A stretch of 26,716 nucleotides of DNA from positions 1 to 26,716 of IMG/VR virus record IMGVR_UViG_3300032050_000688; one strand, 5' to 3'. Below, piece by piece: positions 1,956 through 18,195 of the stretch. The position numbers were made by a program, and so were the translations under genes. Positions within the stretch are counted from its first letter, which is position 1. The number at the start of each line of letters is the position of its first letter. Under the pieces are notes generated by a model. The model worked only from the letters and a program-made list of their open reading frames with translations. It was not told where the DNA came from and did no database searches. Source of the DNA: a virus.

Positions 1956-3698
1956 GTGGCAGTATTTAGTCGCGAACCCGATAAGAATCGTGCGGGGCGT
2001 CGTAGATCAGCAGCAGCTGTCCGTCGTGCTATTAACTCTCCTTCTCTGTCTCTTAGCTCTATTGCAAACGTTCCAGGTTTTGCTACACCAGTCCCATACT
2101 CATATCCTCGTGGCCTTACTGCTGCCGCAGCGCAGATTCGTCTAAACGATAAGGGCGAGGCCGAGCAATTTCGTTCACGTCGTCTTGCAGGAGCAAACTC
2201 CTGGCAGACTGAGGCGTGGGAATACTATGACGCCATCGGTGAAATTAAATACGCATTTAGTCTTGTTGGATCTGTAATATCTCGTATTCGTCTTTATGCC
2301 GCGGTGATTGATAATCCTGCCGAGCCACCATTTCCAGTTCGCAACAGTGACCTATTAGATAAGCGTCTTGCCTCTGCCGCAGAGCGCGCAATTGTTCGTC
2401 TTGACTCCGCATACGGCGGACAGGCTGGACTTCTTCGTGATGCAGCGTTAAACCTAGCAGTTTCCGGTGAGTGTTACCTAGTCCAAATTCCAGAGCGCCG
2501 TGGACAAGGACTTCCAGAGACTTGGGATATTCGTTCAGTTGATGAAGTTCAGGTTGACCAAAAGGGTGCATACACAATTATTCCTCGTCGTGAGGCTTCA
2601 ACACTTACTGGACAAAAAAATGCTGGTCAACTTATTTTGCCAAAGAACGCTTTCGTTGGTCGTATCTGGAGAGCGCACCCACGATATTCCGACGAGGCTG
2701 ATTCAAGCCTACGCGGTTTGTTAGATCTTTGTGCAGAGCTACTTCTCCTCAACAGAACGTTCCGTGCTACTGCACGCTCACGCCTAAACGCTGGTGCGTT
2801 GTACTTACCTGACGGTCTTTCTGTTGCCGGTTCACCAGACCCAGATTATCCATATGATGATGATGACGCAACTAATCAAGACTTTAGTCCTGAGGAAGCA
2901 GCGGACGAGTTTGAAGATCAGTTGATGGATGCGATGACGACTCCGATTCGTGACGAGGACTCTGCGTCTGCAGTTGTTCCTCTTATCATTCGCGGTCCTG
3001 CTGAGCTTGGTGACAAGATTAAGCAATTCAAGTTTGAACGTTCATTTGACCCTGCACTTGCGCAACGTGCAGATCGCGTTCTTGAAAGAATCCTACAAGG
3101 TCTAGATGTACCAAAGGATATTGTTACAGGCCTTGCAAACGTAAAATACTCAAACGCTCTTCAAATTGATGAGTCTCTATACAAAGCACATATCGAACCG
3201 TTAATGCTTCTCATTGCAGACGCAATTACAGTTGTTTATCTGCGTCCTTACCTGATTGCAAATGGGTTCGACCCAGCTCAGGTAGAACGCATCTGCGTAT
3301 GGTATGACCCATCACAGGTAGCTACGCGCAATGACCGCGCGGCTGACGCAGATGCTGGATTTGACAGGGGAGTAATTTCCGGAGATGCGTGGCGTAGATC
3401 GCACGGATTCACAGAGCAGGATGCACCAACGCCAACAGAAGTTGCACTACGTCTTCTTAAGGAGAAGGGCGCAATCACGCCAGAGCTTACAGAGGCAATG
3501 CTTGGAGCCGTTGCTCCTGACGTAATGAAGGCAACACGTCTTGCATCACAGGCACAATCACTTGCACCAATTCCGCCAGAGGTTGAACGACTTCTTAAGG
3601 GACCACAGTCTACAGAACCAGTAGCTGACGAGGCTGCACCAGAAACTCCAGAGACGCCAACAGAGACAACAGAGCCAACACCGACAACAGAGGTTTAA
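1956..3698 (+). CDS. Portal protein
   Basis: The portal is the dodecameric ring at one capsid vertex through which DNA enters and leaves, and it docks terminase and the head-tail adaptor. The protein is 580 residues. Diagnostic features are the early helix GEIKYAFSLVGSVISRIRLY, the segment LRDAALNLAVSGECYLVQIP (the portal clip/wing pattern), and the stem and crown region LPKNAFVGRIWRAHPRYSDE through GLDVPKDIVTGLANVKYSNA. An acidic insertion (PYDDDDATNQDFSPEEAADEF) lies near residue 300. The C-terminus ends in a long Glu/Thr/Pro-rich tail (last 30 residues), probably disordered. A GTG start at 1956 is supported by AAGGAG at 1944-1949. The next gene begins two bases after the stop. Confidence 0.93.
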   Translation: MAVFSREPDKNRAGRRRSAAAVRRAINSPSLSLSSIANVPGFATPVPYSYPRGLTAAAAQIRLNDKGEAEQFRSRRLAGANSWQTEAWEYYDAIGEIKYAFSLVGSVISRIRLYAAVIDNPAEPPFPVRNSDLLDKRLASAAERAIVRLDSAYGGQAGLLRDAALNLAVSGECYLVQIPERRGQGLPETWDIRSVDEVQVDQKGAYTIIPRREASTLTGQKNAGQLILPKNAFVGRIWRAHPRYSDEADSSLRGLLDLCAELLLLNRTFRATARSRLNAGALYLPDGLSVAGSPDPDYPYDDDDATNQDFSPEEAADEFEDQLMDAMTTPIRDEDSASAVVPLIIRGPAELGDKIKQFKFERSFDPALAQRADRVLERILQGLDVPKDIVTGLANVKYSNALQIDESLYKAHIEPLMLLIADAITVVYLRPYLIANGFDPAQVERICVWYDPSQVATRNDRAADADAGFDRGVISGDAWRRSHGFTEQDAPTPTEVALRLLKEKGAITPELTEAMLGAVAPDVMKATRLASQAQSLAPIPPEVERLLKGPQSTEPVADEAAPETPETPTETTEPTPTTEV

Positions 3699-3700
3699 CA

Positions 3701-4516
3701 ATGTCAATTGAGCCAGTTGATCTTTTAGACTCTTACGAGCCAGTAACCGCTGCGGGCGAAGGTCCGTGCTGGGATGGTTACAAACAAGTTGGAATGAAGA
3801 AGGGTAAGAACGGAAACATGGTTCCTAACTGTGTTCCTAAAGACTCGTCTGATTCAACAGAAACAGAGTTTGCAAATCCTCGTGCTCCTAAAAAAGATCG
3901 CATCTACGGCTCAAAGAAAAATAAAAAAGGATCTGCGTCTGGCGGAAAGAAAATCGTGTTTAGCGCTCGAACAGAGGCAACGCTTCGTGAGAAGGTTAAG
4001 AAGCATAATGAAAAAGCGCCTGAAGGGCGTAAGGCAACACTTGGAATGTTAAAGGCGGTGTATCGCCGCGGCGCAGGTGCATTCTCAAGCTCGCACCGTG
4101 CAGGCATGACAAGAGATGGCTGGGCGTTTGCTCGCGTAAATGCATTTCTACGTCTATTAAAAAGTGGACGTCCCGCAAATCCAAACTACAAACAGGACAA
4201 TGATCTTTTACCAGCAAAGCATCCACGTTCAAGTAAAGGTGATGCTTCTGTGATTGCATCACTATACGCAAATCAAGAACTATATATTTCACTTAAGGAC
4301 GAAGAAGAGTATCACTCACCAGAACATGCAATCTTAGCTATGGCAGAACTTTCTGGAGAAGGATACGAAATTATCCCTGCCTTACGAGCAGCTTGGCTTC
4401 GTGGCGTTCGTGAGAACGAGTCGCCGTTTGACCGTGCAGCAGTTCTAGCGTCTGCTTTATATGATTCTAAAGACGCCGATCTTTTACCAACTAAGGAGTC
4501 ACCTCAAAGTGTATGA
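3701..4516 (+). CDS. DUF5824-type head-region protein with N-terminal Cys motif
   Basis: A 271-residue protein of unknown function. Three parts are visible. Residues 14-50 hold PVTAAGEGPCWDGYKQVG followed by a Lys/Gly loop and NCVPK; this two-Cys module occurs in many phage head proteins. Residues about 65-105 are very basic (KKNKKGSASGGKK). Residues 112-162 (VYRRGAGAFSSSHRAGMTRD, then WAFARVNAFL) match the pattern I know as DUF5824. The C-terminal third is helical. A motif DLLPAKHPRSS near residue 168 returns as DLLPTK at the C-terminus and as DLLPVGHPNS in the next protein. The gene starts two bases after the portal stop and overlaps the following gene by eight bases, so all three are probably cotranslated. 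A minor capsid or packaging role is inferred from position only. Confidence 0.82.
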   Translation: MSIEPVDLLDSYEPVTAAGEGPCWDGYKQVGMKKGKNGNMVPNCVPKDSSDSTETEFANPRAPKKDRIYGSKKNKKGSASGGKKIVFSARTEATLREKVKKHNEKAPEGRKATLGMLKAVYRRGAGAFSSSHRAGMTRDGWAFARVNAFLRLLKSGRPANPNYKQDNDLLPAKHPRSSKGDASVIASLYANQELYISLKDEEEYHSPEHAILAMAELSGEGYEIIPALRAAWLRGVRENESPFDRAAVLASALYDSKDADLLPTKESPQSV

Positions 4517-7500
4517 GCTAATTAACGATATTCTTACACGGAGAGAGAACACCGTAGTTGTAAAACCAAAGTTCCGTGGAGCAAAAAAGACACTTCGCCA
4601 ATCTGTACTTGAATTAGCTGCCACTGAAAATAAAAAGGTAACTGCTGAGCGTCGTGTTTCTACTCAGTCAGTTTTAGCCGTTGCTGAGCGCTCACTAAGT
4701 AAGACAGCTCATCTTGACGACAAAACTCGTAAGTTTATCGCGTATAAGGAAGTTTCATCTTTTATTAGCCTAGCGCAAACTGGAGAACTTCCATCAGGCT
4801 CAAAAATATCCTGCTTTGACCTTCTACCAGTAGGTCACCCTAACTCTACGTCACGTAATGCAATGACCGCGTCTGCACTACGTCACGCTCGTTCTCGCTG
4901 GATTGCAGCTGATCCACGTATCGATGATGAGGCAAGAGAGATCGTTGCGGCAGCGTATTTTTATGATAAGGATTCTGTAGAGTACGCACATGCAATTACC
5001 TCATTGCAGGTTCTTATCGCTGGTGGTGTTCCTCGTGAGGTTTATTTAACAGCACTCACCGCTGCATTTAGTTTTGGTGACGGTAACTCTTCAGCTGCTC
5101 GCCGTCTGCGCGCAAATCTACAGTGGCGTGACCGTTTAGGCCGCTGGATTGAAATGGGTCGCGGTATTGGTTTTAAGATTAACATCGGCGGGAACAACGT
5201 TCCGATCAATGGAAAGTTTGTTGGCGTTGATGGTAATCGCGGACTTGTTCAGGTTAAGGGTGATCCAAATCTCCCAGATGGTATCTATCCTGTTGAATCA
5301 AGTAACGCTCAGGAATACAAGGCGCTTCTACCAGACAGCGTAGCTGGAAAACTTAAGGGTAAGCTTTCTTCTATTCTTGAAAAAAGAGCGCAGATCTTCT
5401 CTAAGGAAGACATGATTAAGATGCGTATGGACGCACCTGCCGGTTGGAAAAAGAATGAGGACGGATCATTTGGTTCTGACGACGATTACATCGTAGAAGA
5501 GTCTGACGGAAAACTCGCGCTGTTCCGTAAGGACAAGAACGGTGACAAGGGCACACAGGTTGGTGAGCCAGTTGATGACTGGGCACAGATCCAAGATCTT
5601 GCAAACGCTGATGAAGAAGATTACGACAAGTTTAAGCGCATTATGTCTTCTCCAAGCAATAAGGATGTTCTTCCAGGTTCTGAGGAAGATCCTTACGATA
5701 AGCTTAATCCTTCTGCAAAGGCTGTGCTAGAAGAGCAGAAAGCTAAGAAGGCAAAAGATAAAGCGTTCTTTGAAGAAAAGAAAAAGAAGTACAACGAGGA
5801 CGTTGATAAGTTTGAAGAGATGTTTGAGCAAGGAAAGGATATTGAAGGACGTGACATTCCTGAAGGCTGGGAACTTGGAATTAGCAAGTACTCGACTGAT
5901 GGCGCCCCTGAGATTAGAACGTTCCAAAAGTTAGTACCAAGTGCAGACGGAAAGAATCAAGTTCAGGTAATTGCAGAAATTGATGACAAAGGCAAGATTA
6001 AGTTTGGACACCGCGCTAATTGGTTTAATAAGGACGAACAAGGATTTGAAGGATACGACACCTGGGAAGAAGTTGAGGCGCGTATTCCTGATGTTGTTAA
6101 GTGGGTTGGAGACTCAAAGAGTCTACAACACGACCCGGCCGATCCTTGGTTTAAGGAAACCATCCCTGTTCCTCGCGCTGGAGATGATGAGCCCGTCGCA
6201 AAGATAGAAGCTAAAGATATCGGAGAATTTCCTGGTCCTGAAGACCAAGAAGGTCCTATCATCGTGCGTGATCTTCCTAAAAAAGAAGAGCCTGTAGCAT
6301 CTAAGTTTACACCTTCTAAAAACGCGTGGAAACTTCAGAGTCCAGAAAAGTTTGAACCCGAAGGTCGCGTTGATGATGAGCAAAGTCCAGATTTTTCAGA
6401 TGACCCAGAAGTTCTTGCAAACAAGTTTGGTGAAGATGCACTTGTTGACGCATTTATTCAAGCAATCGTTGGTAAAAAGGATTACGCGTTAGATCTTCTT
6501 GATGACAGCTCTTCTGAAGAAGAAGAAGAAGAAGTAGACGAAGACGGAAAGCCTATAAAGAAGCCAAAGAAGAAAGGACCTGGCGCTCCTAAAAAACAGC
6601 CTGAAAAGCCGATTGTTGGTCTTGGCGTTGGCGCTCTTGATTTTAAGGGTGGCGAAGAGTGGATTCCAGCAGAGGCAATCTATCTTGCACTAAAGAAGCA
6701 AGGATACGATGCTGATCTTCTTCTTGCACAACTGTATGACACAGGTTTAGGCGAAAGTAAGAATCAAGATCTTCTTAAGTCTCTTCGTAAGGAAGAAACT
6801 GTAGAGATGCAGACACCTCTACTTGACGCAATTGATCCTGATGATGCAGATGCTATTGCAAGAGCAAACGTTGATGTTGCACTCGCGGACTCTGGATCTG
6901 CAGTAGTTTCGCAGCTGCTAGAACTTAATAGAAGTGGTGAGCCAAACGCTAAGATCGTAGAACTTGCTGCTGCCATTAGAAATGCAAAAGGAGCTTCAGC
7001 AGGAAGCAAAGACGAGAAGATCTCAGAAGATCTTCAAAAACTGCTAGATGATTACATTGGAGGAGCACTTGACCCCGATGCGTCTCCTGAGGACAAACAA
7101 GCGTTTCAAGCGCTATGGGCAACAATCACTGCTCTTGATGAGGGAATCAGTGACGGTGTAGAGGAGACTAGACTTGCACTTGGCGTGTTTGACGCAATTA
7201 AAAAGTATAACGGATCTGCTGAGTGGCCAGAGGTGCAAGAGTTCTTTAAGAAAAATGGAAGCATAAACGATCTAATTAAGTCAAAGCAAGCCATAATTGA
7301 TGGAAGAGAATCAATTGACAGCGACACCTCTTTTGCTGGTGCATTCTTTAGACTTATGGTTGAGTCATCTCGGTACAATCAAACATCTTTGTATCGAGGA
7401 ATACAGGTGCCAAATGATAGTCCTCTTTTAGAGAAAATTAGAAATGGAGAAGTTCTAGCATTTGATGCTCGCTCGTTCTCAATGGATCAAAACTTAGCCA

Positions 7501-10500
7501 GAGTCTTTTCAGGTGGACTTAACAGCGTAAAAGACAAGACTGCTGTTGTATTTACAATCCGTCCTGAGAAAGGAAGATCTGTTGATTTAAGTAGACTATC
7601 TCCTTTTGAAGAGCAAGAGCATAGAGTCTTAGGTAACTTTAAGATCGTAAAAGTAAAAGAATCAAAGAACTCGGCTGGTAAGACAGTTCTTGAGGTTGAG
7701 ATTGAGACACTGTCAAAGCGCGACGCAGTTCTTTCTGGACTAGACTCGGATTACGAGAATCTTTTAATGGAAACAAACGAGTCTCCAGAGATGCCAGAAG
7801 GTTACCACAAGATTGACCCTGCTCGCTATGAGTCAAGGGCAGATCAAGAATACCCAGAGAACTTTGAAGATAAGCCTAATGCAGTAGCACGTAGCTATCC
7901 ACGCGAGAAACTAGCACCGGCGTTTAGAGCAGCAATTGAAGATGGCTCAGGTGAGGTTATTCTTAAGGTAGATGATGAAAAAGAAGTTACAGTTGCTGTA
8001 GAGCTTATTCGTGATGCCTTGCAGATTCAAGGTGTTGACACAAACGCGCTATTAGAAGATATTGCAAATGCAGATCCAGATGCAGAAGTCACTAATGAGG
8101 AAGCTGATGCTGTAGAAGAAAGCTCAGAGAATCCAGTAAATGCAATTGTTGAAGAAGCTAACACCGAGTATGACATGCAAAACTGGAAGAAGGTTGGTCC
8201 TCAACTTGGATCTAACGAAGGTGGTTTCTACGAGGACGCTGAAGGCAACCGTTACTACGTAAAGACTCCTAAGTCTGATCTTCACGCAGAGAATGAAGTT
8301 CTTGCTGCTGCGCTTTATAAGCTTCTTGGTGTTGATGCAGCTGATCTCGGTATCGCCAGTGCGGACGACGGTGTAAAGAAAACGTTCTCTCCAGACATCA
8401 TTGGTTCAAAGCAAGATCTACAAGAAAAATTAAATGACCCAGAGTATCTTGCTAAGTTGCAAGAAGGCTTCGCAGTTGATGCATGGCTTGGAAACTGGGA
8501 CGTTGCAGGTTTAGGATTTGATAACGTAATGTCCGATGGTGATGGCAACCCTGTCCGTGTAGACCCAGGTGGAGCGCTTTTATTCCGCGCTATGGGTAAA
8601 CCTAAGGGTTCTTTATTTGGCAATGATGTCAATGAACTAGATACCTTACGTGATCCTAATATGAATCCGCAGTCTGCTGCGATATTTGGTTCAATGACTG
8701 ATGAACAACAAAAGGAATCAGCGCGCAAGCTTCTTAACATATCAAACGATGATATTGACTCAATGGTTGATGGAATTGTTTCTAACCCAGAAGCTGCACA
8801 GGAAATTAAGGATAAGTTAAAGGCTCGTCGTAAGTTTATTCTTGACCGCTACGATCTACTCAGTGAAGATTCATCTACCTTAATTGAAAATGTAGACGTT
8901 GAAGATGAGAACGATAAAGATCCAGAGGCTGTCTCAACTCCTGAAGGCAAGAGCAAGGAAATTGACAGTCGTCTTGACACTGCTCGCAGCTGGGCTGAAG
9001 AGTATGCGCTTGATGAGAATATGCTTGCATCAGCTCGTAAGAAGTTTCAAGCTGTAGCAGATCAAATTGACAAGGTACTTGTTGACTGGCGCAATGGCGA
9101 GATCTCTGATGAAGAACTTCCAGGTGTATTAGACGAGTTACGTGATCTTGCAGACTTTGGTAAGATTGGTGATGATACAGAGCTGTTAAACAACATCGAT
9201 GACCTAGATGAACAACTTATGAATCTTAAGGAATACATCGAGGAAGAAAACAAGAAGAACGCGCCAGACAAAGTTGAAGTAGAAGAACCTGCTAAGTCTG
9301 CAGATCCTGTACCGACAGAGTCTGTAACTAATCCTTATAAAGATAAAAATGGAACACCTATTGAGCCTGGTGCAAAACTTCGCTATGAAAAGAAGGGTGT
9401 TGTTCTTGAAGGAGTATTTGTAAAATACGACAAGAGTGTTCAGTATGTCCAGGTAAAGTTCCCAGACGAAAAGAAAGCTCGTGCGATGAGCACAAAGTAT
9501 CTTACAGTTATTACTGACGGTGACGACGGTGGTGGTGGCGAAAGCCCAAAAGCCCCTGAGCCTTCACCGGCTCCAACTTCGGCTCCGGACCCAACTCCAA
9601 CGCCTTCTGTAGAGCCTGATGCTGATGATTTAGTTGATGAAAAGAAAGAACCTAAACAAGATGACATTGGACAGTTCGATACTACTGCCAAACTAACAGA
9701 AGATGGCAAAAAGGTTCGTGTATCTTTTGTCGTTGATGGAAATCGTCCTTTCAACCCAAACAGTGACACTGGTCCTAATAGTTATGAAGAAGTTCTGCCT
9801 TATGCAGTTGACTCCAAGTTAGATGTTGATGGCGTTGATGAGGTTACGGTTGAAATTCCTCTTGAGAAGATGGACGAATTTCTAAAAACTTATCAATCTT
9901 TCTTTAATGAAAAACTAGTCCCTGAAGAGTTTTACGGTGACCTATATGAAAAGTCACCTAAGAAACTTCAAGCGCACTCACAGATGATTAAAGATCTGCT
10001 AGACCAGCAGGGAACTAAGATCTCTGATGAAAAAGCTAATCAGATTCGCGACGCTATAGATCAAGAAGGTCTTGTTGATTGGTCTGAGGCAGATGACGCA
10101 GATATCATTTCAGCAATTACGGACATAGTTGCTCCAGGCATAGTTGATATTAGTGAAGAGATTGCAACAGGTGAAGCTAGCAAGGAAGAAAAGAAAGAAG
10201 AACCTAAACCTGAAGAATCAAAATCAGAAGAACCTGGGCCATTTTTTGACAAGGATCTTAATAAAGCAGCGCAGTTAGTTGCAAACCTTTATCAGTATGG
10301 AGGACTAAAATCTGAAGATCTTGTTGGTGTAAACCCGGAGCTAGGCGCCATTGCAGTAAATGTAGACGGTCAGATACTTGTATTTGATGGACCTAATGAT
10401 AAGTACACTACTATAGAAGACGCTGATAAAGATTTTTATGCCGGAGGAGACGGAGCAGTCTTTGGTTGGAGAGAACCAACTACCGCAGAACAAGTAGACT

Positions 10501-12272
10501 TAAAAGGTAAAATTGAAACTGAGTCAACTCCATTTGACCAAGGCGAGCAAGAGATCCAGCAAGAGCTTGATGCAGATGTAGACTCAAGCACAGAAGATCT
10601 AGATGTTCCTGAAGGTCTATTGTCAGCTCCAGACGCTAATGGAAAAAATGTTTTTGCAGGCGTAAAGGTTGCTGATAAAGACGGAGTAATTGGAACTGTA
10701 ATCGGAGTAAATAAGCAAAATTACGCAAGAGTAGATTTTGGAAACGGAACTGTTAAGTGGCGTTCAGTTAAAACATTGAAATCTACAGGAGAGCTTGATG
10801 AGAACTTCCAAGGATCTACAGTAAAGGTAAGCGGAGGTAAGTCTACCGGAGCAGGCGCGCCACCAGTTATCGTTGATAGTCCAGCAGACTGGAAACTATC
10901 AAACTTTGAAAATGTACCCGCACTTCCTGACGCAATCGCAAGAGTTTTAGACACAACTGACAAGAACGCCGGAATGCGCGGAGCTTCAGTTGCAGTGGAT
11001 GCAGACTCCATTGAAGATCTTGATGTTCGTGTAATTCATGTTAAGGATGAGAATGGCGTTGATAACATTCAACTAAAGTTTAAGCTCACAAACTGGGCAG
11101 GAAAACAAAGAGTAGCTGAAATAGCTAAGATGACTCCTTCTGAGCAAGCAGAAAATGGAATTCAAGTTAGCCCGATGAAAATTCAAAGAATTGACGTCGA
11201 CAAGGACGGTGTTGGACAAATCTCTAGCACAGAGACTGCCTACACTAACGGTGCAGGTAGAACTTACACAATTACCACTGAGGACGGAATTGTTATTAAG
11301 ATTCATCGCGCAAACGCTGATGGTTCTGATACCTTTGGTAAAGGATATGGACAGAGCCCTGCCCGTGCGTTTCATAATACAGTTCAAATTCAAGCACCGG
11401 TTGATGCAACCGAGGACCAGATTGCAAATGCCTTAAAAATTGCTGGTGTCAGCGAGGTTCGTCCAGCTACACCGGCTGACTCAAAGATTCTTGTCGAGAA
11501 TCGCCTGATGAGTATATTTGATGCAAAGACAGATGCAAACACAAACCCTAAAGGTGAAAAGAGAGCAGAAAGCTTAGCAAAGGTAAAGGACAAGTGGGGT
11601 CTAACTGTAGACGACGTTATTGTTACCACGGGTGCCTCTGGAAGAATAGAGTACCGTCTTTCTCCAGAAGGAGCAAAAAAGATCTGGGAGGCGACAGGAA
11701 AACCTGCAGTTATTAACCACAGTCTTCGTAATCCAGGGATTCTTTCCTACACCATGACGGAAGAGGAGAAGGACAAAGCAATGACCGATTGGATTGTTGG
11801 TCTTATTGACAATCCTCAAGGAGGTCTACTTTCAACGACAGCTCGATGGACAGAAGGCGTTGGCGTTCATGGCCAGTCAAGCGCAAGAGACATCGAGACC
11901 GGAGGAGCAGACTACGTATTTACTCGTCCTTCTAGCAATGACGGCAAGAAAAGATACGGGACTAGCGATTACGTACCTACCCTGTATTTTGATCCTTTAA
12001 AGTTGTATGAACGTCTAGACTTTTACGCAAACTACACTGATAAGTTTGGGGCACGTCAAAAGAACAAGGATGTTATCTCTGCGGCAAAGGTTGGAGCCTA
12101 CGAGGTTATGTTCAAACATCGCCTTGCCTGGGAAGATCTTGACGTTATGGTAGTTTCTAAGAGAGTTCACACAGGAGTAATTGAGGGACTAAAGGCTCGA
12201 GGAATTACAACAATTGGTGGTCGTCCAATCGAGGAGGTTATCATTATTGAAACAGGAGAGACTAAGACATGA
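4509..12272 (+). CDS. Giant (2,587 aa) multidomain protein: ADP-ribosyltransferase + kinase-like + C-terminal ART-like
   Basis: The GTG at 4509 is preferred because AAGGAG lies at 4493-4498. The protein is highly acidic and mosaic. Residues 103-200 hold DLLPVGHPNS and helices; 207-213 RDRLGRW; 228-290 a small beta barrel-like segment. Residues 667-700 are an acidic (Ser3Glu6) then Lys/Pro-rich stretch. Residues about 870-1070 are an R-S-ExE ADP-ribosyltransferase (R963, S989-F-S991, E1035-Q-E1037). Residues about 1220-1450 are a HipA/PI-kinase-like core (K1252, E1263, D1331, N1339, D1352). Residues 1608-1668 and 2048-2093 are KOW/SH3-like modules, with a Pro/Thr linker at about 1675-1708. A C-terminal domain (about 2370-2587) contains GGADYVFTR. 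Its place between portal and protease suggests a capsid-internal protein that may be ejected into the host. The N-terminal function is unknown. No frameshift is seen. Confidence 0.88.
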   Translation: MYELINDILTRRENTVVVKPKFRGAKKTLRQSVLELAATENKKVTAERRVSTQSVLAVAERSLSKTAHLDDKTRKFIAYKEVSSFISLAQTGELPSGSKISCFDLLPVGHPNSTSRNAMTASALRHARSRWIAADPRIDDEAREIVAAAYFYDKDSVEYAHAITSLQVLIAGGVPREVYLTALTAAFSFGDGNSSAARRLRANLQWRDRLGRWIEMGRGIGFKINIGGNNVPINGKFVGVDGNRGLVQVKGDPNLPDGIYPVESSNAQEYKALLPDSVAGKLKGKLSSILEKRAQIFSKEDMIKMRMDAPAGWKKNEDGSFGSDDDYIVEESDGKLALFRKDKNGDKGTQVGEPVDDWAQIQDLANADEEDYDKFKRIMSSPSNKDVLPGSEEDPYDKLNPSAKAVLEEQKAKKAKDKAFFEEKKKKYNEDVDKFEEMFEQGKDIEGRDIPEGWELGISKYSTDGAPEIRTFQKLVPSADGKNQVQVIAEIDDKGKIKFGHRANWFNKDEQGFEGYDTWEEVEARIPDVVKWVGDSKSLQHDPADPWFKETIPVPRAGDDEPVAKIEAKDIGEFPGPEDQEGPIIVRDLPKKEEPVASKFTPSKNAWKLQSPEKFEPEGRVDDEQSPDFSDDPEVLANKFGEDALVDAFIQAIVGKKDYALDLLDDSSSEEEEEEVDEDGKPIKKPKKKGPGAPKKQPEKPIVGLGVGALDFKGGEEWIPAEAIYLALKKQGYDADLLLAQLYDTGLGESKNQDLLKSLRKEETVEMQTPLLDAIDPDDADAIARANVDVALADSGSAVVSQLLELNRSGEPNAKIVELAAAIRNAKGASAGSKDEKISEDLQKLLDDYIGGALDPDASPEDKQAFQALWATITALDEGISDGVEETRLALGVFDAIKKYNGSAEWPEVQEFFKKNGSINDLIKSKQAIIDGRESIDSDTSFAGAFFRLMVESSRYNQTSLYRGIQVPNDSPLLEKIRNGEVLAFDARSFSMDQNLARVFSGGLNSVKDKTAVVFTIRPEKGRSVDLSRLSPFEEQEHRVLGNFKIVKVKESKNSAGKTVLEVEIETLSKRDAVLSGLDSDYENLLMETNESPEMPEGYHKIDPARYESRADQEYPENFEDKPNAVARSYPREKLAPAFRAAIEDGSGEVILKVDDEKEVTVAVELIRDALQIQGVDTNALLEDIANADPDAEVTNEEADAVEESSENPVNAIVEEANTEYDMQNWKKVGPQLGSNEGGFYEDAEGNRYYVKTPKSDLHAENEVLAAALYKLLGVDAADLGIASADDGVKKTFSPDIIGSKQDLQEKLNDPEYLAKLQEGFAVDAWLGNWDVAGLGFDNVMSDGDGNPVRVDPGGALLFRAMGKPKGSLFGNDVNELDTLRDPNMNPQSAAIFGSMTDEQQKESARKLLNISNDDIDSMVDGIVSNPEAAQEIKDKLKARRKFILDRYDLLSEDSSTLIENVDVEDENDKDPEAVSTPEGKSKEIDSRLDTARSWAEEYALDENMLASARKKFQAVADQIDKVLVDWRNGEISDEELPGVLDELRDLADFGKIGDDTELLNNIDDLDEQLMNLKEYIEEENKKNAPDKVEVEEPAKSADPVPTESVTNPYKDKNGTPIEPGAKLRYEKKGVVLEGVFVKYDKSVQYVQVKFPDEKKARAMSTKYLTVITDGDDGGGGESPKAPEPSPAPTSAPDPTPTPSVEPDADDLVDEKKEPKQDDIGQFDTTAKLTEDGKKVRVSFVVDGNRPFNPNSDTGPNSYEEVLPYAVDSKLDVDGVDEVTVEIPLEKMDEFLKTYQSFFNEKLVPEEFYGDLYEKSPKKLQAHSQMIKDLLDQQGTKISDEKANQIRDAIDQEGLVDWSEADDADIISAITDIVAPGIVDISEEIATGEASKEEKKEEPKPEESKSEEPGPFFDKDLNKAAQLVANLYQYGGLKSEDLVGVNPELGAIAVNVDGQILVFDGPNDKYTTIEDADKDFYAGGDGAVFGWREPTTAEQVDLKGKIETESTPFDQGEQEIQQELDADVDSSTEDLDVPEGLLSAPDANGKNVFAGVKVADKDGVIGTVIGVNKQNYARVDFGNGTVKWRSVKTLKSTGELDENFQGSTVKVSGGKSTGAGAPPVIVDSPADWKLSNFENVPALPDAIARVLDTTDKNAGMRGASVAVDADSIEDLDVRVIHVKDENGVDNIQLKFKLTNWAGKQRVAEIAKMTPSEQAENGIQVSPMKIQRIDVDKDGVGQISSTETAYTNGAGRTYTITTEDGIVIKIHRANADGSDTFGKGYGQSPARAFHNTVQIQAPVDATEDQIANALKIAGVSEVRPATPADSKILVENRLMSIFDAKTDANTNPKGEKRAESLAKVKDKWGLTVDDVIVTTGASGRIEYRLSPEGAKKIWEATGKPAVINHSLRNPGILSYTMTEEEKDKAMTDWIVGLIDNPQGGLLSTTARWTEGVGVHGQSSARDIETGGADYVFTRPSSNDGKKRYGTSDYVPTLYFDPLKLYERLDFYANYTDKFGARQKNKDVISAAKVGAYEVMFKHRLAWEDLDVMVVSKRVHTGVIEGLKARGITTIGGRPIEEVIIIETGETKT
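6516..6533 (+). repeat. GAA trinucleotide run (six units), coding for Glu6
   Basis: Six tandem GAA codons encode residues 670-675 of the giant protein, directly after three Ser codons and before a Lys/Pro-rich stretch. It is a simple repeat inside a charged, probably disordered linker and could vary in length by slippage. Confidence 0.85.
7130..7720 (+). other. Domain: R-S-ExE ADP-ribosyltransferase (VIP2/C3-like)
   Basis: Within the giant protein, the three catalytic elements of arginine-type ADP-ribosyltransferases occur in order and at normal spacing. They are LYRGI (R963, NAD binding), DARSFSMD (the S-T-S position, here S-F-S at 989-991) and FEEQEHRV (ExE at 1035-1037). A helical N-lobe precedes them (about residues 870-955). 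All key residues are present, so the domain is probably active. By family knowledge the R-S-ExE set with E at the first Glu position usually marks arginine-directed transferases. Phage enzymes of this kind (T4 Alt is the model) travel in the head and modify host RNA polymerase or ribosomal proteins; the target here is unknown. Confidence 0.88.
8169..8880 (+). other. Domain: HipA/PI-kinase-like catalytic core
   Basis: Within the giant protein, residues about 1220-1450 show kinase landmarks in order. RYYVKTPKSD contains the ATP-binding Lys (K1252). HAENEVLAAALYKLLGV contains the helix-C Glu (E1263). GNWDVAGLGFDNV is a catalytic loop with D1331 and N1339. PVRVDPGGALLFR is the metal-binding Asp (D1352) in a D-P-G-G variant of the DFG motif. 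This layout is closer to HipA and phosphoinositide 3/4-kinase-like enzymes than to eukaryote-like protein kinases. Such domains are known in phage polyvalent proteins. The substrate is not predictable from sequence. The family call rests on motif order, with no alignment run. Confidence 0.7.
11610..12269 (+). other. Domain: C-terminal ART-like fold (PARP/DarT-like pattern), putative
   Basis: The last 200 or so residues of the giant protein carry VINHSLRN (H2404), LLSTTARWTEGVGVHGQSS, GGADYVFTR (about 2465) and YEVMFKHRLAWEDLDVMVV (E2532), ending in ARGITTIGGRPIEEV. I recall a very similar C-terminal segment in other actinophage giant head proteins. The order (His on a first strand, an I/L-L-S-T helix entry, a G-x-x-Y-V-F strand resembling the PARP GxYF turn, then a Glu beginning an E-V-x-F strand) is what an H-x-E ADP-ribosyltransferase would show. 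That fold assignment is inference and needs a structure prediction. Confidence 0.4.
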
Positions 12273-13333
12273 TGAATAAGTTAAAGCTTACAGACGAGGC
12301 CGCGTGGAAGACAGACGAAGGCTTTCTAGCCGGACCAGCGGTTCTTGTTGCTAACACTGAAAACGGTTCAGCCATGCTTAAGCCTATCTATGGACTTCAC
12401 ATCGAAGAGCTTGACGGTAGCCCACATGTTGGAGCAGCTACCATTGAAGGTATACGCTACTACCCTCTTGTTCGCGCGGAGGATGTTCGCGTAAGTGCAA
12501 TTAGAGGAGACATAACATTCTCAAGTTACGGTACTATTTATACGGTAAGGGCATTTCAAGATATTGATGGTAGATGGGCTTCTCGTCTAAAAACCGTCGT
12601 TCCTGCTGAGGCGTTAGAGGAGATATACATGGCAGAGGTAAAGTTGGCGTTTACTCCGAACGCTCCTGCTCTTGATGACAGTTTATATGCGGCAATTGAC
12701 AGTGAGTCAGACGAGGTTAAATATCTTGTGTATTCATCTGAGGCTGGAATGTACACCCGCTCAAATCGTGGCTGGTTTAAGTTGCCGGTTGATGACGAGT
12801 CACTTGATGGCCTAGAGGTTCACGAGGTAACTCCTAAGTTTACTAAGATATTTGATATGGCAGAAGGAAATGAGGAAATTCTTACCTCAAAGGACACTGC
12901 CCAATACGCAGGCGAGGAGTCAGAGCCGATTACCGCGGCAGCTGAGTCAAACCCAGATTGCCCACCAGCAACACAGGACATCAAAGTTAATCTTGAAAAT
13001 CGTGAATACGCGATTAAAAATGCTGGATACGGCCCATTGAATCCAAACGAACCAAATGATGAGTTTTGGGAAGAAAAAGGAAAGCGCTGGGGCGTTGACG
13101 CTGATGAGGCACGAAAGAGTACATGTGCCAACTGTGTAATGTTTATTCGTACACCAAGCATGCTTGACTGTATTTCATCTGGAATTCAGCAAGGCGGATC
13201 CTCTAGTGATGATGCCTGGGACGCAGTTGATACTGCAGAACTTGGTTACTGCGAGGCTTTAGATTTTAAGTGTGCTGCTTCTCGTACTTGTAGCGCGTGG
13301 GTAGTCGGCGGACCCATTACGGAGGAAGAATAA
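12269..13333 (+). CDS. Cys-rich virion-region protein, possible metal-binding C-terminal domain
   Basis: A 354-residue protein. The ATG at 12269 overlaps the preceding stop (ATGA), and a second in-frame ATG follows at 12272; the short overlap supports coupled translation. Residues 1-215 are beta-rich and unfamiliar. At 219-226 stands EPITAAAE, a motif shared with neighbouring head proteins, which then leads into a distinct C-terminal domain. That domain has seven cysteines: C231, C286 and C289 (CANC), C301, C328 (GYCEAL), C335 and C341 (RTCSAW). The arrangement WGVD, CxxC, DCI, GYC, FKC, RTCSAW recurs in head-region proteins of marine and actinobacterial phages as I recall, and resembles a small iron-sulfur (HiPIP-like) or zinc module. 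The metal is not determinable here. The gene overlaps no protease coding sequence if the protease starts at 13336. Confidence 0.82.
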   Translation: MMNKLKLTDEAAWKTDEGFLAGPAVLVANTENGSAMLKPIYGLHIEELDGSPHVGAATIEGIRYYPLVRAEDVRVSAIRGDITFSSYGTIYTVRAFQDIDGRWASRLKTVVPAEALEEIYMAEVKLAFTPNAPALDDSLYAAIDSESDEVKYLVYSSEAGMYTRSNRGWFKLPVDDESLDGLEVHEVTPKFTKIFDMAEGNEEILTSKDTAQYAGEESEPITAAAESNPDCPPATQDIKVNLENREYAIKNAGYGPLNPNEPNDEFWEEKGKRWGVDADEARKSTCANCVMFIRTPSMLDCISSGIQQGGSSSDDAWDAVDTAELGYCEALDFKCAASRTCSAWVVGGPITEEE

Positions 13334-13335
13334 AA

Positions 13336-16300
13336 GTGGTAAACGTACTCGGAGTTAGAGACTCACTAGTTCTATTTCAAAGTGGAGACAGTGGAGTTGT
13401 AATTGACAAGGACGTTAATCTTGTCGTTGAGACTGGTGACGCTGAGGCATTGTTTGCCTCAAGTAGCTGGAATCCTAACTCTGAAGAGATTTCACAGTCA
13501 ATGTTTGATCTTGCGCACGGCGCACTTGCAAATTTAGAAATTAAGGTAATTGTTGCATCAGGTCGTCTCTACACAATTCCTCGTGGAGTACAAGTTGAAG
13601 CAAAGAAGGCGCTTGAATGGCGCAAGGAACATAAGAGAGGAGGGACACCCGTTGGCCTCAACACCGCGCGCACTCTTTCTAAGGGAGGGCAAATTGGAAT
13701 CGAAAAAGTTAGGCATATTGCGAAGTATTTTCCGCGCCATGAGATTGATAAGAAGGCGGAAGGGTGGCAACCAGGTGAGAAGGGCTTTCCTTCTCGCGGG
13801 CGTATTGCGTGGGCTCTCTGGGGCGGGGATGCTGGATGGCGATGGGCGCAAGCAATCGTCGAAAGAGAAAACAAAAAATCTTTAACTGCTGATGGCTATG
13901 GTCTTCCTGGATATGAACAAGACCCTAACGAATATGAGGCTCCTCGTCTTTACACATCAGATTTAGACGCGTTTAAAGAAGCAATGGAAAAACCAGAAAT
14001 TGTTTCTCCAGAATTTATTGCCCGCGTAAGACTTGATGGATCTGGCATTGACCGTCTTTACAAGATTGATCTTGATGGAAGCGTTTTTGTTTGGGATGGA
14101 TCTGGCTGGGACACATTAGGACTTTATGGTGCAGATATTTACGCATATGACAACGCACTTGATGATAATGAAGATATTTACGTTGAAAAATCTCACGTTG
14201 TAATTGATCCTGATTCTGCAATAATCATAGCTGCACGACTACAACTAAATCCTGACCGTTGCGTAATGGTAGAGGACATTGACTACGATGAGGCTCAACT
14301 TGCTGCCCGCGCAATGAACGAGGTTGACTGGGAGTACGTTGATAGCGCAATGACTGCTGCTGGAGAACAGTCTACAGCACCAGTAACTGATGGAGAGTAT
14401 TCTCCAGAGGAACGCTCAAAGAATGCAGCTCGCCAAGTTCGCGATGCATCAGGCCGCTTTGCTTCACAAGGCTCTCGCGTTGTTGTTGGTGGTGACGTGC
14501 AAAATGGTGTTGGTACTATTCGTGCGATTAACCCTGAGTCAAGCACGGTAAAGGTTCAATTTGACAACGGAACAATGGCAGACGTTCCAGCAGCAAGCAC
14601 TGAGAAGGTTGACAAGTACATTGGTGCAATCTCAAGAGAGACTATAGAAACTCCAGGATTTGATACTACGGGAATACTTGCTCAACCACGTACTCCAATT
14701 GACCGTCCAGATGTTCAGATTCCTGGAACTCTTCCAGCACTTCGCCCAAGTGATATGTCTGAGATTGTTAACAATTGGCCAGCGTGGGTTAAATCGCAAA
14801 GAGATCAATTTAAGGGTGCGGATTCTGCTACTCCAACTTCAGCTCCAGCACCATCGTCTAATCTAAAGACTTCTCCAACAGGTACACCACCTTCTGTGCC
14901 TACAAGCCCAGGTGGTTCTCCAATCTCTTCACAGGCTAAACCTGACCGCGCGGAAACTCGCTGGTATGACGAATCAAAGATTCCTGATGATAGAACTGAC
15001 AAGATGAAGGACTTGATGAAGACAACTGGCGATAAACTTACGCTAGATGCCTATGATCATCCTTTATTAAAGAACTTCTTAAACAAGACGGTAAAAACAA
15101 AGTCTGGAGAAACGTTAAAGCCAAATCAGCTTTGGTATCAGCCTATCGCGCCAGCAGTTAGAGGCGCGGCAGCAGCAGAAGAATTAACACCAGATAACTC
15201 TGACGTTCAACCTCTATTTATGGCACTTGTATCTCCAGATGATCCTCGTGCGGTTATGGATTTAGTTGCTCTTGTCCCAGCAAACTCAAAATCAACTCTT
15301 CCAATGACATACAAAAGAGCTGAAGGCAAGTGGGTTCGTGATGAGGGAATTCTAGGAGATCTAAACTCAGCAACTCCTCCTCCAGTGGTCCCTCTCGACA
15401 GTGCTACTCTTCAAGATGTGCTAAAGCAAATTGACACCAACACTGTTACTGCATCCGTCGTTGTGTCTGAGACATTAGATCACATTCTTACAGTCTTATG
15501 GGGACCAACACTTGTTGCTGCTGGCGGACTTGACCGTAACCGTGGAAACGCTGAAAAGCTTCGTCGCTATTGGACAGTTGGTAAGGGCGGTCTAAAGATT
15601 CGTTGGAATACTGGCGGAGACTGGACCCGTTGTGTTCGTCAGCTATCTAAGTATCTTGGACCTCGTGCAAAAGGATATTGTTCTCTTCGTCATAAGGAGA
15701 TGACCGGAATGTGGACAGGTGATAAAAAACATCGTCAGCTTTATGGACGTAAAGGCCGTGGACGTAATGCATTTAGCAATGATGTTATTGCAACGTCTGA
15801 GGAGATTATCGAGAGAGCCGCGTTAAATGCTCGCGCAAGAGACGCGCGTGTCCGTATGGGACTAGTCGCGTCTATTGAAGGATACAAGGGATCAGCTTTT
15901 AAGATGCCTCTTGTTATTCCTGAAGAGATCGAGTCTGGTGACGGTCGTAAGTTCCGTAAAAACGCAATTGATATGCGCGAACTACCGCTTCCTTTAATGT
16001 GGCAGATTAAGACTGGTGAAGGTCACATGGGATCAGTTGTAGTTGGTCGCATTGATCAAATGGAAAGAACTGACCAAGGCATTGGAAATGCCTATGGAGT
16101 ATTTGATACTGGTGAATATGGCAAGGAAGCAGAACGTCTTGTTCGCGAAGGTTTTATCCGTGGAATTTCAGCTGACATGGATATGTTTGAAGCCAAGGAA
16201 GAAAAAATAGAAGCTGGAGACGATACAGAAGGCAAGGTAGGTAATGGTAAGATTGACATTACTAAAGCACGAGTTATGGGAGTTACTATCGTGCCTAAGC

Positions 16301-18066
16301 CTGCGTTCCAAGAATGCAAGATTTTCCTCGTTGAGGAAGAAAAAGAGATACAGGAGGATAACGTGATTCCTGACGGAGTCTATGTGGAAGATGTGGATCC
16401 GACAGAAGCAGCGTCGCTAGTCGCATGCGGCTTTGTCGCTGGCGCGATCCCGGTTGTTCCACCTAAAAGCTGGTTTGACAATCAGCAACTTAATAAGCCA
16501 ACGCCACTTACGGTGACAGACGAAGGCCAAGTGTATGGTCACATTGCTGCATGGCATGTAGATCACATTGGACTAGCGTATGGAACTAAGCCACCTCGCT
16601 CAAAGAGCAAGTACGCCTACTTCCACACAGGAGTGGTTCGTACCGATGATGGAACAGATGTTCCTGTCGGCCAACTAACATTAGCAGGTGGACATGCTTC
16701 ACTCGAGGCTAGCGCTCACGAGGCTGCTCGTCACTATGACGATACCGCCTCTGCGATTGCAGATGTTCACGCAGGTGAAGATGCCTACGGTATCTGGGTA
16801 GCTGGATCAATTCGTCCAGGCGCTACTCCAGAACAAATTCGTGCTCTTCGTGCATCAGCACCTTCTGGTGACTGGCGTCCAATTAAGAACAGCCTTGAGC
16901 TTGTTGCCGTATGTCAGGTAAACGTTCCAGGGTTCCCAATTGCTCGTGCCCGTGTTGCATCAGGCCAGGTTATGGCACTTGTTGCCGCTGGCGCAAGTAC
17001 ATTAGCTAAGCTAAAGAGTGACCCTGTGTCAGAACTTGCTGCTCGTGTACAAAAACTGGAGCAGTTAGAACTAGTAGAACTTTCAGCAAAAGCTGATGGT
17101 GCTCGCGAGCGTTTTGCCGATATTCGTGCAGCCCGTAGGGCAGAACTTCAAGCACAGATCGCCGAGCTTTCTTCTCGCGTTCTTCCAACGGAAGATTATG
17201 AAGACGGATTTGGTTACATCTCCCGTGAGACTCGCCAAAAGCTTGCCAAGGAAGGTAAGGCTCTACCGGACGGTTCTTATCCAATCACAAACGTAGATAG
17301 CCTAAAGGATTCCATCCAGGCCTATGGACGTGGCAAGCCTTCAAAGCGTGCGGCGATTCGTCGTCACATCATGAAGCGTGCTCGCGTTCTTGACCGTGCG
17401 GACCTTATTCCTGAAAAATGGAAGGCAATGTCCTCAGAGGAGATTAGCTTTGCAGTAGAAGGTCTTCGTTCACGTATTCCTGCAACTACAGCCTCAGCAG
17501 AGGAAACAACCGACTTGGGAAAAGCATTAGCGGTTGAGACTGCCGAGCCAGAGGCTAAATACGTCTCTGGCAAGACTCAACCGCGTGATTCTAAAGGAAA
17601 GTTTCGTCAAGTTCTAGCCCGTATTAAGCAGGACCTTGGAGAGTCTGGTCTACAGGACGTTGTAGAAAAGATCGCCGAGACTGAGGGACTAGAAAATGCT
17701 GGTAACTACGTTGAGGCTGCTCGTTCTGCGACGGATCTCATTGGAATTATTGACCGCATTGACTCAAGGGCTCTTAATCCAGAGGCCCTAACAAACGTGC
17801 GCGAGAGTGCACGCGCTCTTGGCGAGACAATCGCCAACCTACCTTTACCTTTTGGAGCGGAAGCAACAAAGGTAAGATTTAGCGATCTACCTCCTGCCCT
17901 ACGTGATCTTGTCGATGACATGATTACAAGGGTTGAAGACAAGATCGGTAAAAAAGACGCGGACGTCGCTACCGAAGGACTACGCGCCTATATGGCTGGA
18001 GGAGACTACTTAAACCAGAGCCAAATAAGCTCTCAATTAAGTAAGCTTCTTCGACTATTAACCTAA
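13336..18066 (+). CDS. Capsid maturation (prohead) protease, giant mosaic form
   Basis: A 1,576-residue protein; GTG at 13336 is chosen because GGAGGAAG lies at 13321-13328. Modules in order: residues 90-180, a conserved basic block (LEWRKEHKRGGTPVGLNTAR, KVRHIAKYFPRHEID); 182-187 SLTADG and 337-344 SAMTAAGE; 369-375 RDASGRF plus a KOW/SH3-like module to 425; a Pro/Ser-rich linker; 734-805, RNRGNAEKLRRYWTVGKGG to KGYCSLRH. The protease core is at 845-1010, with catalytic His897 (GEGHMGS) and Ser945 (FIRGISADMDMF), then VMGVTIVPKPAF, as in U35-type proteases. Residues 1046-1215 (KPTPLTVTDEGQVYGHIAAW, SGDWRPI) are the actinophage protease companion domain. A coiled coil (1228-1283), a YISRETRQKLAKEG module (1288-1365) and a scaffold-like C-terminus (1414-1576) follow. 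It should process scaffold and head proteins. Such proteases are usually much shorter. Confidence 0.9.
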   Translation: MVNVLGVRDSLVLFQSGDSGVVIDKDVNLVVETGDAEALFASSSWNPNSEEISQSMFDLAHGALANLEIKVIVASGRLYTIPRGVQVEAKKALEWRKEHKRGGTPVGLNTARTLSKGGQIGIEKVRHIAKYFPRHEIDKKAEGWQPGEKGFPSRGRIAWALWGGDAGWRWAQAIVERENKKSLTADGYGLPGYEQDPNEYEAPRLYTSDLDAFKEAMEKPEIVSPEFIARVRLDGSGIDRLYKIDLDGSVFVWDGSGWDTLGLYGADIYAYDNALDDNEDIYVEKSHVVIDPDSAIIIAARLQLNPDRCVMVEDIDYDEAQLAARAMNEVDWEYVDSAMTAAGEQSTAPVTDGEYSPEERSKNAARQVRDASGRFASQGSRVVVGGDVQNGVGTIRAINPESSTVKVQFDNGTMADVPAASTEKVDKYIGAISRETIETPGFDTTGILAQPRTPIDRPDVQIPGTLPALRPSDMSEIVNNWPAWVKSQRDQFKGADSATPTSAPAPSSNLKTSPTGTPPSVPTSPGGSPISSQAKPDRAETRWYDESKIPDDRTDKMKDLMKTTGDKLTLDAYDHPLLKNFLNKTVKTKSGETLKPNQLWYQPIAPAVRGAAAAEELTPDNSDVQPLFMALVSPDDPRAVMDLVALVPANSKSTLPMTYKRAEGKWVRDEGILGDLNSATPPPVVPLDSATLQDVLKQIDTNTVTASVVVSETLDHILTVLWGPTLVAAGGLDRNRGNAEKLRRYWTVGKGGLKIRWNTGGDWTRCVRQLSKYLGPRAKGYCSLRHKEMTGMWTGDKKHRQLYGRKGRGRNAFSNDVIATSEEIIERAALNARARDARVRMGLVASIEGYKGSAFKMPLVIPEEIESGDGRKFRKNAIDMRELPLPLMWQIKTGEGHMGSVVVGRIDQMERTDQGIGNAYGVFDTGEYGKEAERLVREGFIRGISADMDMFEAKEEKIEAGDDTEGKVGNGKIDITKARVMGVTIVPKPAFQECKIFLVEEEKEIQEDNVIPDGVYVEDVDPTEAASLVACGFVAGAIPVVPPKSWFDNQQLNKPTPLTVTDEGQVYGHIAAWHVDHIGLAYGTKPPRSKSKYAYFHTGVVRTDDGTDVPVGQLTLAGGHASLEASAHEAARHYDDTASAIADVHAGEDAYGIWVAGSIRPGATPEQIRALRASAPSGDWRPIKNSLELVAVCQVNVPGFPIARARVASGQVMALVAAGASTLAKLKSDPVSELAARVQKLEQLELVELSAKADGARERFADIRAARRAELQAQIAELSSRVLPTEDYEDGFGYISRETRQKLAKEGKALPDGSYPITNVDSLKDSIQAYGRGKPSKRAAIRRHIMKRARVLDRADLIPEKWKAMSSEEISFAVEGLRSRIPATTASAEETTDLGKALAVETAEPEAKYVSGKTQPRDSKGKFRQVLARIKQDLGESGLQDVVEKIAETEGLENAGNYVEAARSATDLIGIIDRIDSRALNPEALTNVRESARALGETIANLPLPFGAEATKVRFSDLPPALRDLVDDMITRVEDKIGKKDADVATEGLRAYMAGGDYLNQSQISSQLSKLLRLLT

Positions 18067-18092: not shown

Positions 18093-18172
18093 GTGGAGTG
18101 CCTCCACGCTATTGCAGCGGAGTCCCTCGGCCTTGGACTGATCAACGAGACGAATGAGAAATCTCGTTCGTC
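18093..18172 (+). promoter_or_regulatory. Structured RNA leader upstream of the major capsid gene (three hairpins)
   Basis: Three inverted repeats follow one another in the 129 bases between the protease stop and the capsid start. Stem GTGGAG/CTCCAC is at 18093-18107 with a 3-base loop. AGTCC/GGACT is at 18121-18139. A strong 10-bp stem GACGAATGAG/CTCGTTCGTC (one G-U) is at 18149-18172 with loop AAAT. There is no T run, so this is not a simple terminator. It ends 11 bases before the capsid Shine-Dalgarno. A role in mRNA stability, processing or translation of the highly expressed capsid gene is likely but inferred. Confidence 0.6.
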
Positions 18173-18183
18173 GTGACTGGCCC

Positions 18184-18193
18184 GGAGGAGGGA
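18184..18193 (+). promoter_or_regulatory. Ribosome binding site deciding the capsid start
   Basis: GGAGGAGGGA ends two bases before the GTG at 18196. It fixes that GTG as the start rather than the in-frame ATG at 18154, which lies inside a hairpin stem and has no Shine-Dalgarno sequence. Confidence 0.85.
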
Positions 18194-18195
18194 CA

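What the first reader, a model, noticed from the sequence alone, without database searches (positions are those of the whole stretch)
4509..12272. Giant capsid-region protein combining an ADP-ribosyltransferase and a HipA/PI-kinase-like domain
Seen: a 2,587-residue frame between portal and protease genes with R963, S-F-S 989-991, ExE 1035-1037, and separately K1252, E1263, D1331, N1339, D1352. Known: R-S-ExE ADP-ribosyltransferases such as T4 Alt are packed in heads and modify host proteins on infection; phage polyvalent proteins carry several effector domains in one chain. Inference: this protein is packaged and delivered to reprogram the host by both ADP-ribosylation and phosphorylation. At this size it would have to be unfolded or cut to leave through the tail; no clear TAAGE-type motif like that of its neighbours is seen in it, so how it leaves is open.
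Basis: partly seen in the sequence, partly recalled or inferred. Interest (0 to 1): 0.82.

Follow-up and report, generated by a model that had tools for sequence, protein, structure and literature searches.

The report
Giant multi-enzyme protein in phage heads
A virus of actinobacteria carries, among its head-building genes, a single 2,587-residue protein with an ADP-ribosylating enzyme, a kinase and probably a second ADP-ribosylating enzyme, which it most likely packs into its shell and injects to disable or re-programme the host cell.

Summary
In detail: a 2,587-residue frame (GTG 4509, AAGGAG 10 nt upstream) lies between portal and S78-type protease, with every named residue where stated. 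R963, E1035 and E1037 are invariant in about 25 relatives; K1252, E1263, D1331, N1339, D1352 in 61-63 of 65. The model of 860-1460 matches R-S-E ADP-ribosyltransferases (Vis, Certhrax) and CtkA/HipA-type kinases (Foldseek probability 1.0).

Three things were missed. (1) The C-terminal domain is probably a second, DarT-like ART with invariant H2404, Y2469, E2532 (fold match weak, E 0.05). (2) The giant does carry the neighbours' TAA motif (LTAA, 183-186), a likely protease site kept in a hypervariable linker (22/23 relatives, 3.2 expected); cutting there would free a ~186-residue propeptide. (3) The kinase usually travels with an ART (73 of 109 proteins), fused in unrelated prophages to MuF or minor-capsid domains; one homologue (Yersinia phage fHe-Yen8-01) is annotated as particle-associated.

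Best reading: a head-packaged polyvalent effector, a kind known since 2017, but a new family with a recurrent kinase-ART tandem. Packaging and catalysis are inferred, not shown.

The parts
4493..4498 (+). Shine-Dalgarno AAGGAG, 10 nt before GTG4509
   Evidence: Sequence printed; start supported by relatives
4509..12272 (+). Giant polyvalent protein, 2,587 residues
   Evidence: homologues
4509..5543 (+). N-terminal module (residues 1-345), shared by the giants of this family; residues 1-186 proposed head-targeting propeptide
   Evidence: propeptide role inferred
5055..5066 (+). LTAA (residues 183-186), proposed prohead-protease site
   Evidence: motif only; cleavage not tested
5127..5147 (+). 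RDRLGRW (residues 207-213), conserved RDxxGR[FW] motif, also in the protease protein
7086..7688 (+). R-S-E ADP-ribosyltransferase domain (residues 860-1060 with its helical lead-in): R963, S989-F-S991, E1035-x-E1037
8151..8888 (+). HipA/CtkA-like kinase domain (residues 1215-1460): K1252, E1263, N1329-W-D1331, N1339, D1352
11091..12269 (+). C-terminal module (residues 2195-2587), DarT-like ART: H2404, R2446, Y2469, R2502, E2532, K2536
1956..3698 (+). Portal protein, carries LTAA at residues 54-57
3701..4516 (+). 271-residue protein with DUF5824 match and VTAAGE near its start; related to giant residues 35-133
13297..18066 (+). 1,589-residue protein with S78-like prohead protease domain (about residues 875-1040), the presumed processing enzyme
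   Evidence: Pfam S78 below its cut-off

Best explanation
The gene encodes a polyvalent effector packed in the head of an actinobacteriophage. Its first ~186 residues act as a head-targeting propeptide, removed inside the prohead by the phage's own S78-type protease at LTAA. The remaining ~2,400-residue chain, folded enzymes on acidic flexible linkers, is expelled with the DNA. In the host the R-S-E ART (ExE, so probably arginine-directed) ADP-ribosylates proteins, the HipA/CtkA-like kinase phosphorylates proteins, and the DarT-like C-terminal ART modifies nucleic acid or a further target. Kinase and ART form a tandem that many phages attach to different head proteins. Shown here: sequence, conservation, the first two folds, gene context, the tandem and its head-domain fusions. 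Inferred: cleavage, packaging in this virus, ejection, catalysis, targets.
For: Catalytic residues invariant; confident models and PDB fold matches for ART and kinase; C domain with invariant H2404/Y2469/E2532 and DarT as best fold matches; position between portal and protease here and in relatives; TAA-type motif shared with portal, capsid, protease and other head-gene products, and kept in 22 of 23 diverse relatives against 3.2 expected; kinase-ART tandem fused to MuF or Phage_min_cap2 in unrelated prophages and enriched; C domain fused to MuF in phage Pan1; homologous kinase+ART protein of Yersinia phage fHe-Yen8-01 annotated 'phage particle associated protein'. Precedents: P1 DarB, 250 kDa, N-terminal packaging signal (PMC9024508); SPN3US propeptides of 20-254 residues (PMC10052503).
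Against: No proteomics of this phage or of an actinophage relative; the particle annotation concerns a distant homologue and its basis could not be read. No Pfam or PHROG family match for the window domains. DarT-like match is weak (E 0.05). The motif count rests on related sequences. No activity is demonstrated, and domains could be inactive.
Confidence: 0.68

Rival explanations
1. The protein is made during infection and acts in the cytoplasm as a host-takeover factor, but is not packaged; its place among head genes only reflects late expression.
For: In Pseudomonas phage Dolphis and relatives the kinase+ART gene lies away from head genes.
Against: MuF and minor-capsid fusions, particle-associated homologue, protease-type motif shared with head proteins.
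Confidence: 0.15
2. It is mainly a structural or scaffolding head protein whose enzyme-like domains are degenerate leftovers.
For: Position between portal and protease; large acidic linkers; N-terminal module shared with neighbouring head-gene products.
Against: Catalytic residues are the most conserved ones; purifying selection; larger relatives add RNase T, UvrD, NUDIX and further ARTs.
Confidence: 0.07
3. ART and kinase are real, but the C-terminal domain is not an ART; it is an unrelated conserved fold, for instance a head-binding module.
For: Foldseek E only 0.05 and TM 0.46-0.47; no Pfam hit; comparison with a DarT sequence not significant.
Against: All five best PDB matches are DarT; viral matches include iridovirus 422L; invariant H...Y...E order; it takes the same place after the kinase as a PF03496 ART does elsewhere.
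Confidence: 0.22

Closest known systems
Phage polyvalent proteins (Iyer et al. 2017, PMC5512222)
   Same: Large multidomain effectors encoded with head genes, often containing ARTs, predicted to be packaged and injected.
   Different: Their described kinases are a truncated protein-kinase type lacking the C-lobe and a zeta-toxin type; HipA/CtkA-like kinase, kinase-ART tandem and DarT-like end domain are not mentioned there.
T4 Alt (packaged R-S-E ART)
   Same: R-S-E class ART, encoded for packaging in the head.
   Different: Alt is a single-enzyme protein of moderate size; here the ART is one of three enzyme-like domains in 2,587 residues, with no sequence-level match to Alt.
CtkA / HipT / HipA kinases
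   Same: Fold and D...N...D catalytic layout.
   Different: No Pfam HipA match for the window domain; joined to ARTs and head domains, not to an antitoxin.
DarT DNA ADP-ribosyltransferases
   Same: Best fold matches of the C domain; H...Y...E order.
   Different: Weak match; no partner DarG seen; carried by a phage in place of a host defence system.
P1 DarB (PMC9024508)
   Same: About 250 kDa head-packaged protein with an N-terminal packaging signal, believed to enter the cell; answers the size objection.
   Different: Antirestriction function; signal lies within 30 residues, the propeptide proposed here is ~186.

Membership tests
Phage polyvalent proteins | Two or more effector domains in one chain | tested here: met
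   ART and kinase folds, probable second ART
Phage polyvalent proteins | Encoded with portal/terminase-type head genes | tested here: met
Phage polyvalent proteins | Packaged in the virion and injected | not testable with these tools
   Only a distant homologue is annotated particle-associated
R-S-E ADP-ribosyltransferases | R, S-[FW]-[ST], ExE motifs in order | tested here: met
R-S-E ADP-ribosyltransferases | ART fold | tested here: met
   Vis E 2.8e-5, Certhrax 3.9e-5, probability 1.0
R-S-E ADP-ribosyltransferases | Match to the sequence family PF03496 | tested here: not met
   No hit; so filed by fold and motif, not as a PF03496 member
HipA (Pfam HipA_2, PF20613) | Sequence family match | tested here: not met
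   No hit for the window; Forza homologue E 0.0079, below cut-off
HipA/CtkA-like kinase fold | Fold and conserved K, E, D, N, D | tested here: met
DarT | Pfam PF14487 match | tested here: not met
   No hit; profile comparison not significant
DarT | DarT fold | tested here: inconclusive
   Best five PDB hits are DarT, E 0.05-0.12, probability up to 0.85
DarT | DNA ADP-ribosylation | not testable with these tools
   Needs assay
Prohead-protease substrates | Short site shared with portal, capsid and other head proteins of the same phage | tested here: met
Prohead-protease substrates | Actual cleavage at that site | not testable with these tools
   Needs N-terminal or mass-spectrometric data

The most novel reading that the evidence does not exclude
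Kinase and ADP-ribosyltransferase form one portable infection module that phages of several bacterial phyla attach to whatever head protein they have, and in these actinophages the head also carries a DarT-type DNA ADP-ribosyltransferase, an enzyme otherwise used by bacteria against phages, turned on the host at the moment of DNA entry.
Probability: 0.25. Interest if true: 0.85.

Novelty: new variant of a known kind. Interest (0 to 1): 0.62.

Why it matters
It gives a concrete, testable case of a phage head that would deliver three host-modifying enzymes in one chain, and shows a recurring kinase-ART pairing in phage head proteins that no paper found here describes. The proposed protease site offers a delivery tag that can be tested directly, and a DarT-like domain in a phage head would reverse the usual roles in DNA ADP-ribosylation.

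Tried and rejected
Pfam, PHROGs and PDB sequence searches with the whole protein gave nothing usable (best PDB E 0.59). PDB profile searches with the three domain alignments also failed. Profile comparison of the ART alignment with a PF03496 ART from Gordonia phage Forza, and of the C domain with a bacterial DarT, was not significant, although the latter put the catalytic-type Glu in register. The in-frame ATG at 4461 was rejected as start. The statement that the giant lacks the TAA motif was rejected. A literature search for HipA with MuF in phage papers found only one paper, on another subject. No paper on phage fHe-Yen8-01 is held, so the basis of 'particle associated' could not be checked.

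Full report
THE OBSERVATION. The frame 4509-12272 encodes 2,587 residues without a stop. GTG4509 is the start: AAGGAG lies 10 nt upstream and relatives begin with ATG at the aligned codon directly after a stop. The window is a 26.7-kb virus fragment. Its gene order is terminase C-terminal part (PF17289), small genes, portal (phrog_776), a 271-aa protein, the giant, a 354-aa protein, a 1,589-aa protein with an S78-like protease domain, major head protein (phrog_777), major tail protein, head-tail adaptor and tape measure. Five of five long contigs with relatives carry WhiB genes, and the nearest named phage, DSL-LC01, was assigned to Actinomycetia (PMC10611076), so these are most likely actinobacteriophages.

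RELATIVES. Close relatives in viral contigs are 71-93% identical in their best segments over long stretches; DSL-LC01 has a 3,290-residue homologue in the same place. Profiles of four regions found many more giants of about 2,300-5,300 residues. Among the 62 distinct kinase proteins tallied at that stage, 17 have the order N - ART - kinase - C and six N - kinase - C. The linkers are variable; about 1-350, 600-1050, 1215-1450 and 2100-2587 are the conserved modules. Purifying selection acts throughout (dN/dS about 0.03-0.19).

ART AND KINASE. In 26 ART homologues R963 is invariant; E1035 and E1037 are invariant where aligned; the middle motif is [SP][FW][ST]. In the kinase, K1252, E1263, N1329, D1331, N1339 and D1352 are kept in 61 to 64 of 65 rows. 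An AlphaFold2 model of residues 860-1460 has mean pLDDT 89.6 (pTM 0.56, as expected if the two domains are flexibly linked). Foldseek against the PDB gives, each with probability 1.0, the R-S-E ARTs Vis (2.8e-5), Certhrax (3.9e-5) and HopU1 (2.9e-4), and the kinases CtkA (1.2e-5), HipT (6.5e-4) and a HipA-type MDT protein entry (3dnv, 1.5e-3). Established biochemistry links ExE to arginine modification (own knowledge). Sequence-family tests fail: no Pfam or PHROG match for the window domains. It has the folds and motifs but is not a recognised member of PF03496 or Pfam HipA.

A THIRD DOMAIN. In 34 homologues H2404, R2446, S2457, D2461, Y2469, R2502, N2508, D2511, E2532 and K2536 are invariant. 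The model has pLDDT 87.2 and pTM 0.86. The five best PDB matches are all DarT, E 0.05-0.12, probability up to 0.85, and viral matches include iridovirus protein 422L; iridovirus ORF28-type ARTs are described as DarT-related (PMC9503650), though whether 422L belongs to them was not tested. The H-Y-E order fits the second ART class. The match is weak and PF14487 is not hit, so I call it DarT-like with moderate confidence (about 0.75). The core of this domain also ends a MuF head protein of Pseudanabaena phage Pan1.

KINASE-ART TANDEM. Scans of viral and bacterial genome contigs gave, with the named phages, 109 distinct kinase-containing proteins; 73 also carry an ART (R-S-E type, PF03496-like or the C domain), in 69 placed after the kinase. 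Among long ORFs of these loci, 73 of 96 kinase proteins but 10 of 73 others carry an ART (Fisher p 2e-16; related sequences, so not a formal probability). The PF03496-like and MuF profiles were built by iteration; Pfam itself confirms representative cases. In unrelated bacterial genomes, apparently prophages, the tandem is fused to MuF (L120 Thalassotalea, L123 Endozoicomonas, L132 Methyloversatilis) or Phage_min_cap2 (L119 Virgisporangium). In Gordonia phage Forza kinase and a PF03496 ART are separate genes between portal and capsid. The kinase+ART protein of Yersinia phage fHe-Yen8-01 is annotated in its record as 'phage particle associated protein'. This is the best available evidence that such proteins are packaged.

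PROCESSING. The giant contains exactly one TA[AG], LTAA at residues 183-186. The same hydrophobic-T-A-[AG] motif occurs in g1243 (ITAG), portal (LTAA), the 271-aa protein (VTAA), the 354-aa protein (ITAA), the protease protein (MTAA) and the major head protein (VTAA, ITAG). In 22 of 23 diverse relatives an [APS]-hydrophobic-[TVI]-A sits in a length-variable linker before the conserved GGNSxAAR...RDxxGR[FW] block; shuffled linkers give 3.2 on average and at most 9 in 2,000 rounds. Because the relatives share descent, this is support and not a formal probability. The natural reading is a prohead-protease site that removes a ~186-residue propeptide. SPN3US head proteins lose N-terminal propeptides of 20-254 residues (PMC10052503), and P1 packages the 250-kDa DarB through an N-terminal signal (PMC9024508), so neither size nor arrangement is without precedent.

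LARGER RELATIVES. Some giants add RNase T, UvrD helicase, NUDIX and a further PF03496 ART in the same chain, as expected of a modular injected effector and not of a scaffold.

MECHANISM. Most likely: synthesised late, drawn into the prohead by its N-terminus, trimmed by the protease, expelled with the DNA; then the enzymes modify host proteins and possibly nucleic acid at the start of infection. Shown: sequence, conservation, two folds, context, tandem. Inferred: packaging in this virus, cutting, ejection, activity and targets. As a kind it is a phage polyvalent protein (Iyer et al. 2017, PMC5512222); as a family, with a HipA/CtkA-like kinase-ART tandem and a DarT-like end domain, I found no description, within the limits of the held library.

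Noticed in passing
window 3989-4291 (in the 271-aa gene 3701-4516): This stretch is weakly similar to giant residues 35-133 (E 4.8e-4) and lies by a DUF5824 match; N-module fragments recur in neighbouring head-gene products of relatives.
   Followed up: partly
window 13297-18066, residues 352-388 and 1430: The protease protein has MTAAGE followed by RDASGRF, and a second RDSKGKF, mirroring LTAA...RDRLGRW of the giant; the RDxxGRF block may be a shared assembly signal.
   Followed up: partly
window 4509-12272 versus L008: Synonymous divergence is patchy (dS 0.01 in 2031-2224 but 0.72 in 351-600), a sign of mosaic recombination inside the gene.
   Followed up: no
L007, L008, L010 at the position of window residues 560-590: Near-identical relatives carry an extra ~100-residue segment here, so the linker is a site of module gain or loss.
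   Followed up: no
L064:4442-19993 and L068:4032-17990: Giants of 4,653-5,184 residues that also contain RNase T and UvrD helicase domains, and in L064 NUDIX and a PF03496 ART.
   Followed up: partly
L112:6483-9758, L114:6717-9335, L154:7629-9308: Kinase homologues in bacterial genomes joined to WGR and ART, to a 2H phosphoesterase and ART, or to NUDIX: the kinase keeps company with ADP-ribose chemistry.
   Followed up: no
window 18154-20205: The major head protein has an Ala/Glu-rich N-terminal ~285 residues ending in ITAGADIPGY, conserved in relatives, which looks like a built-in scaffold removed at maturation.
   Followed up: no
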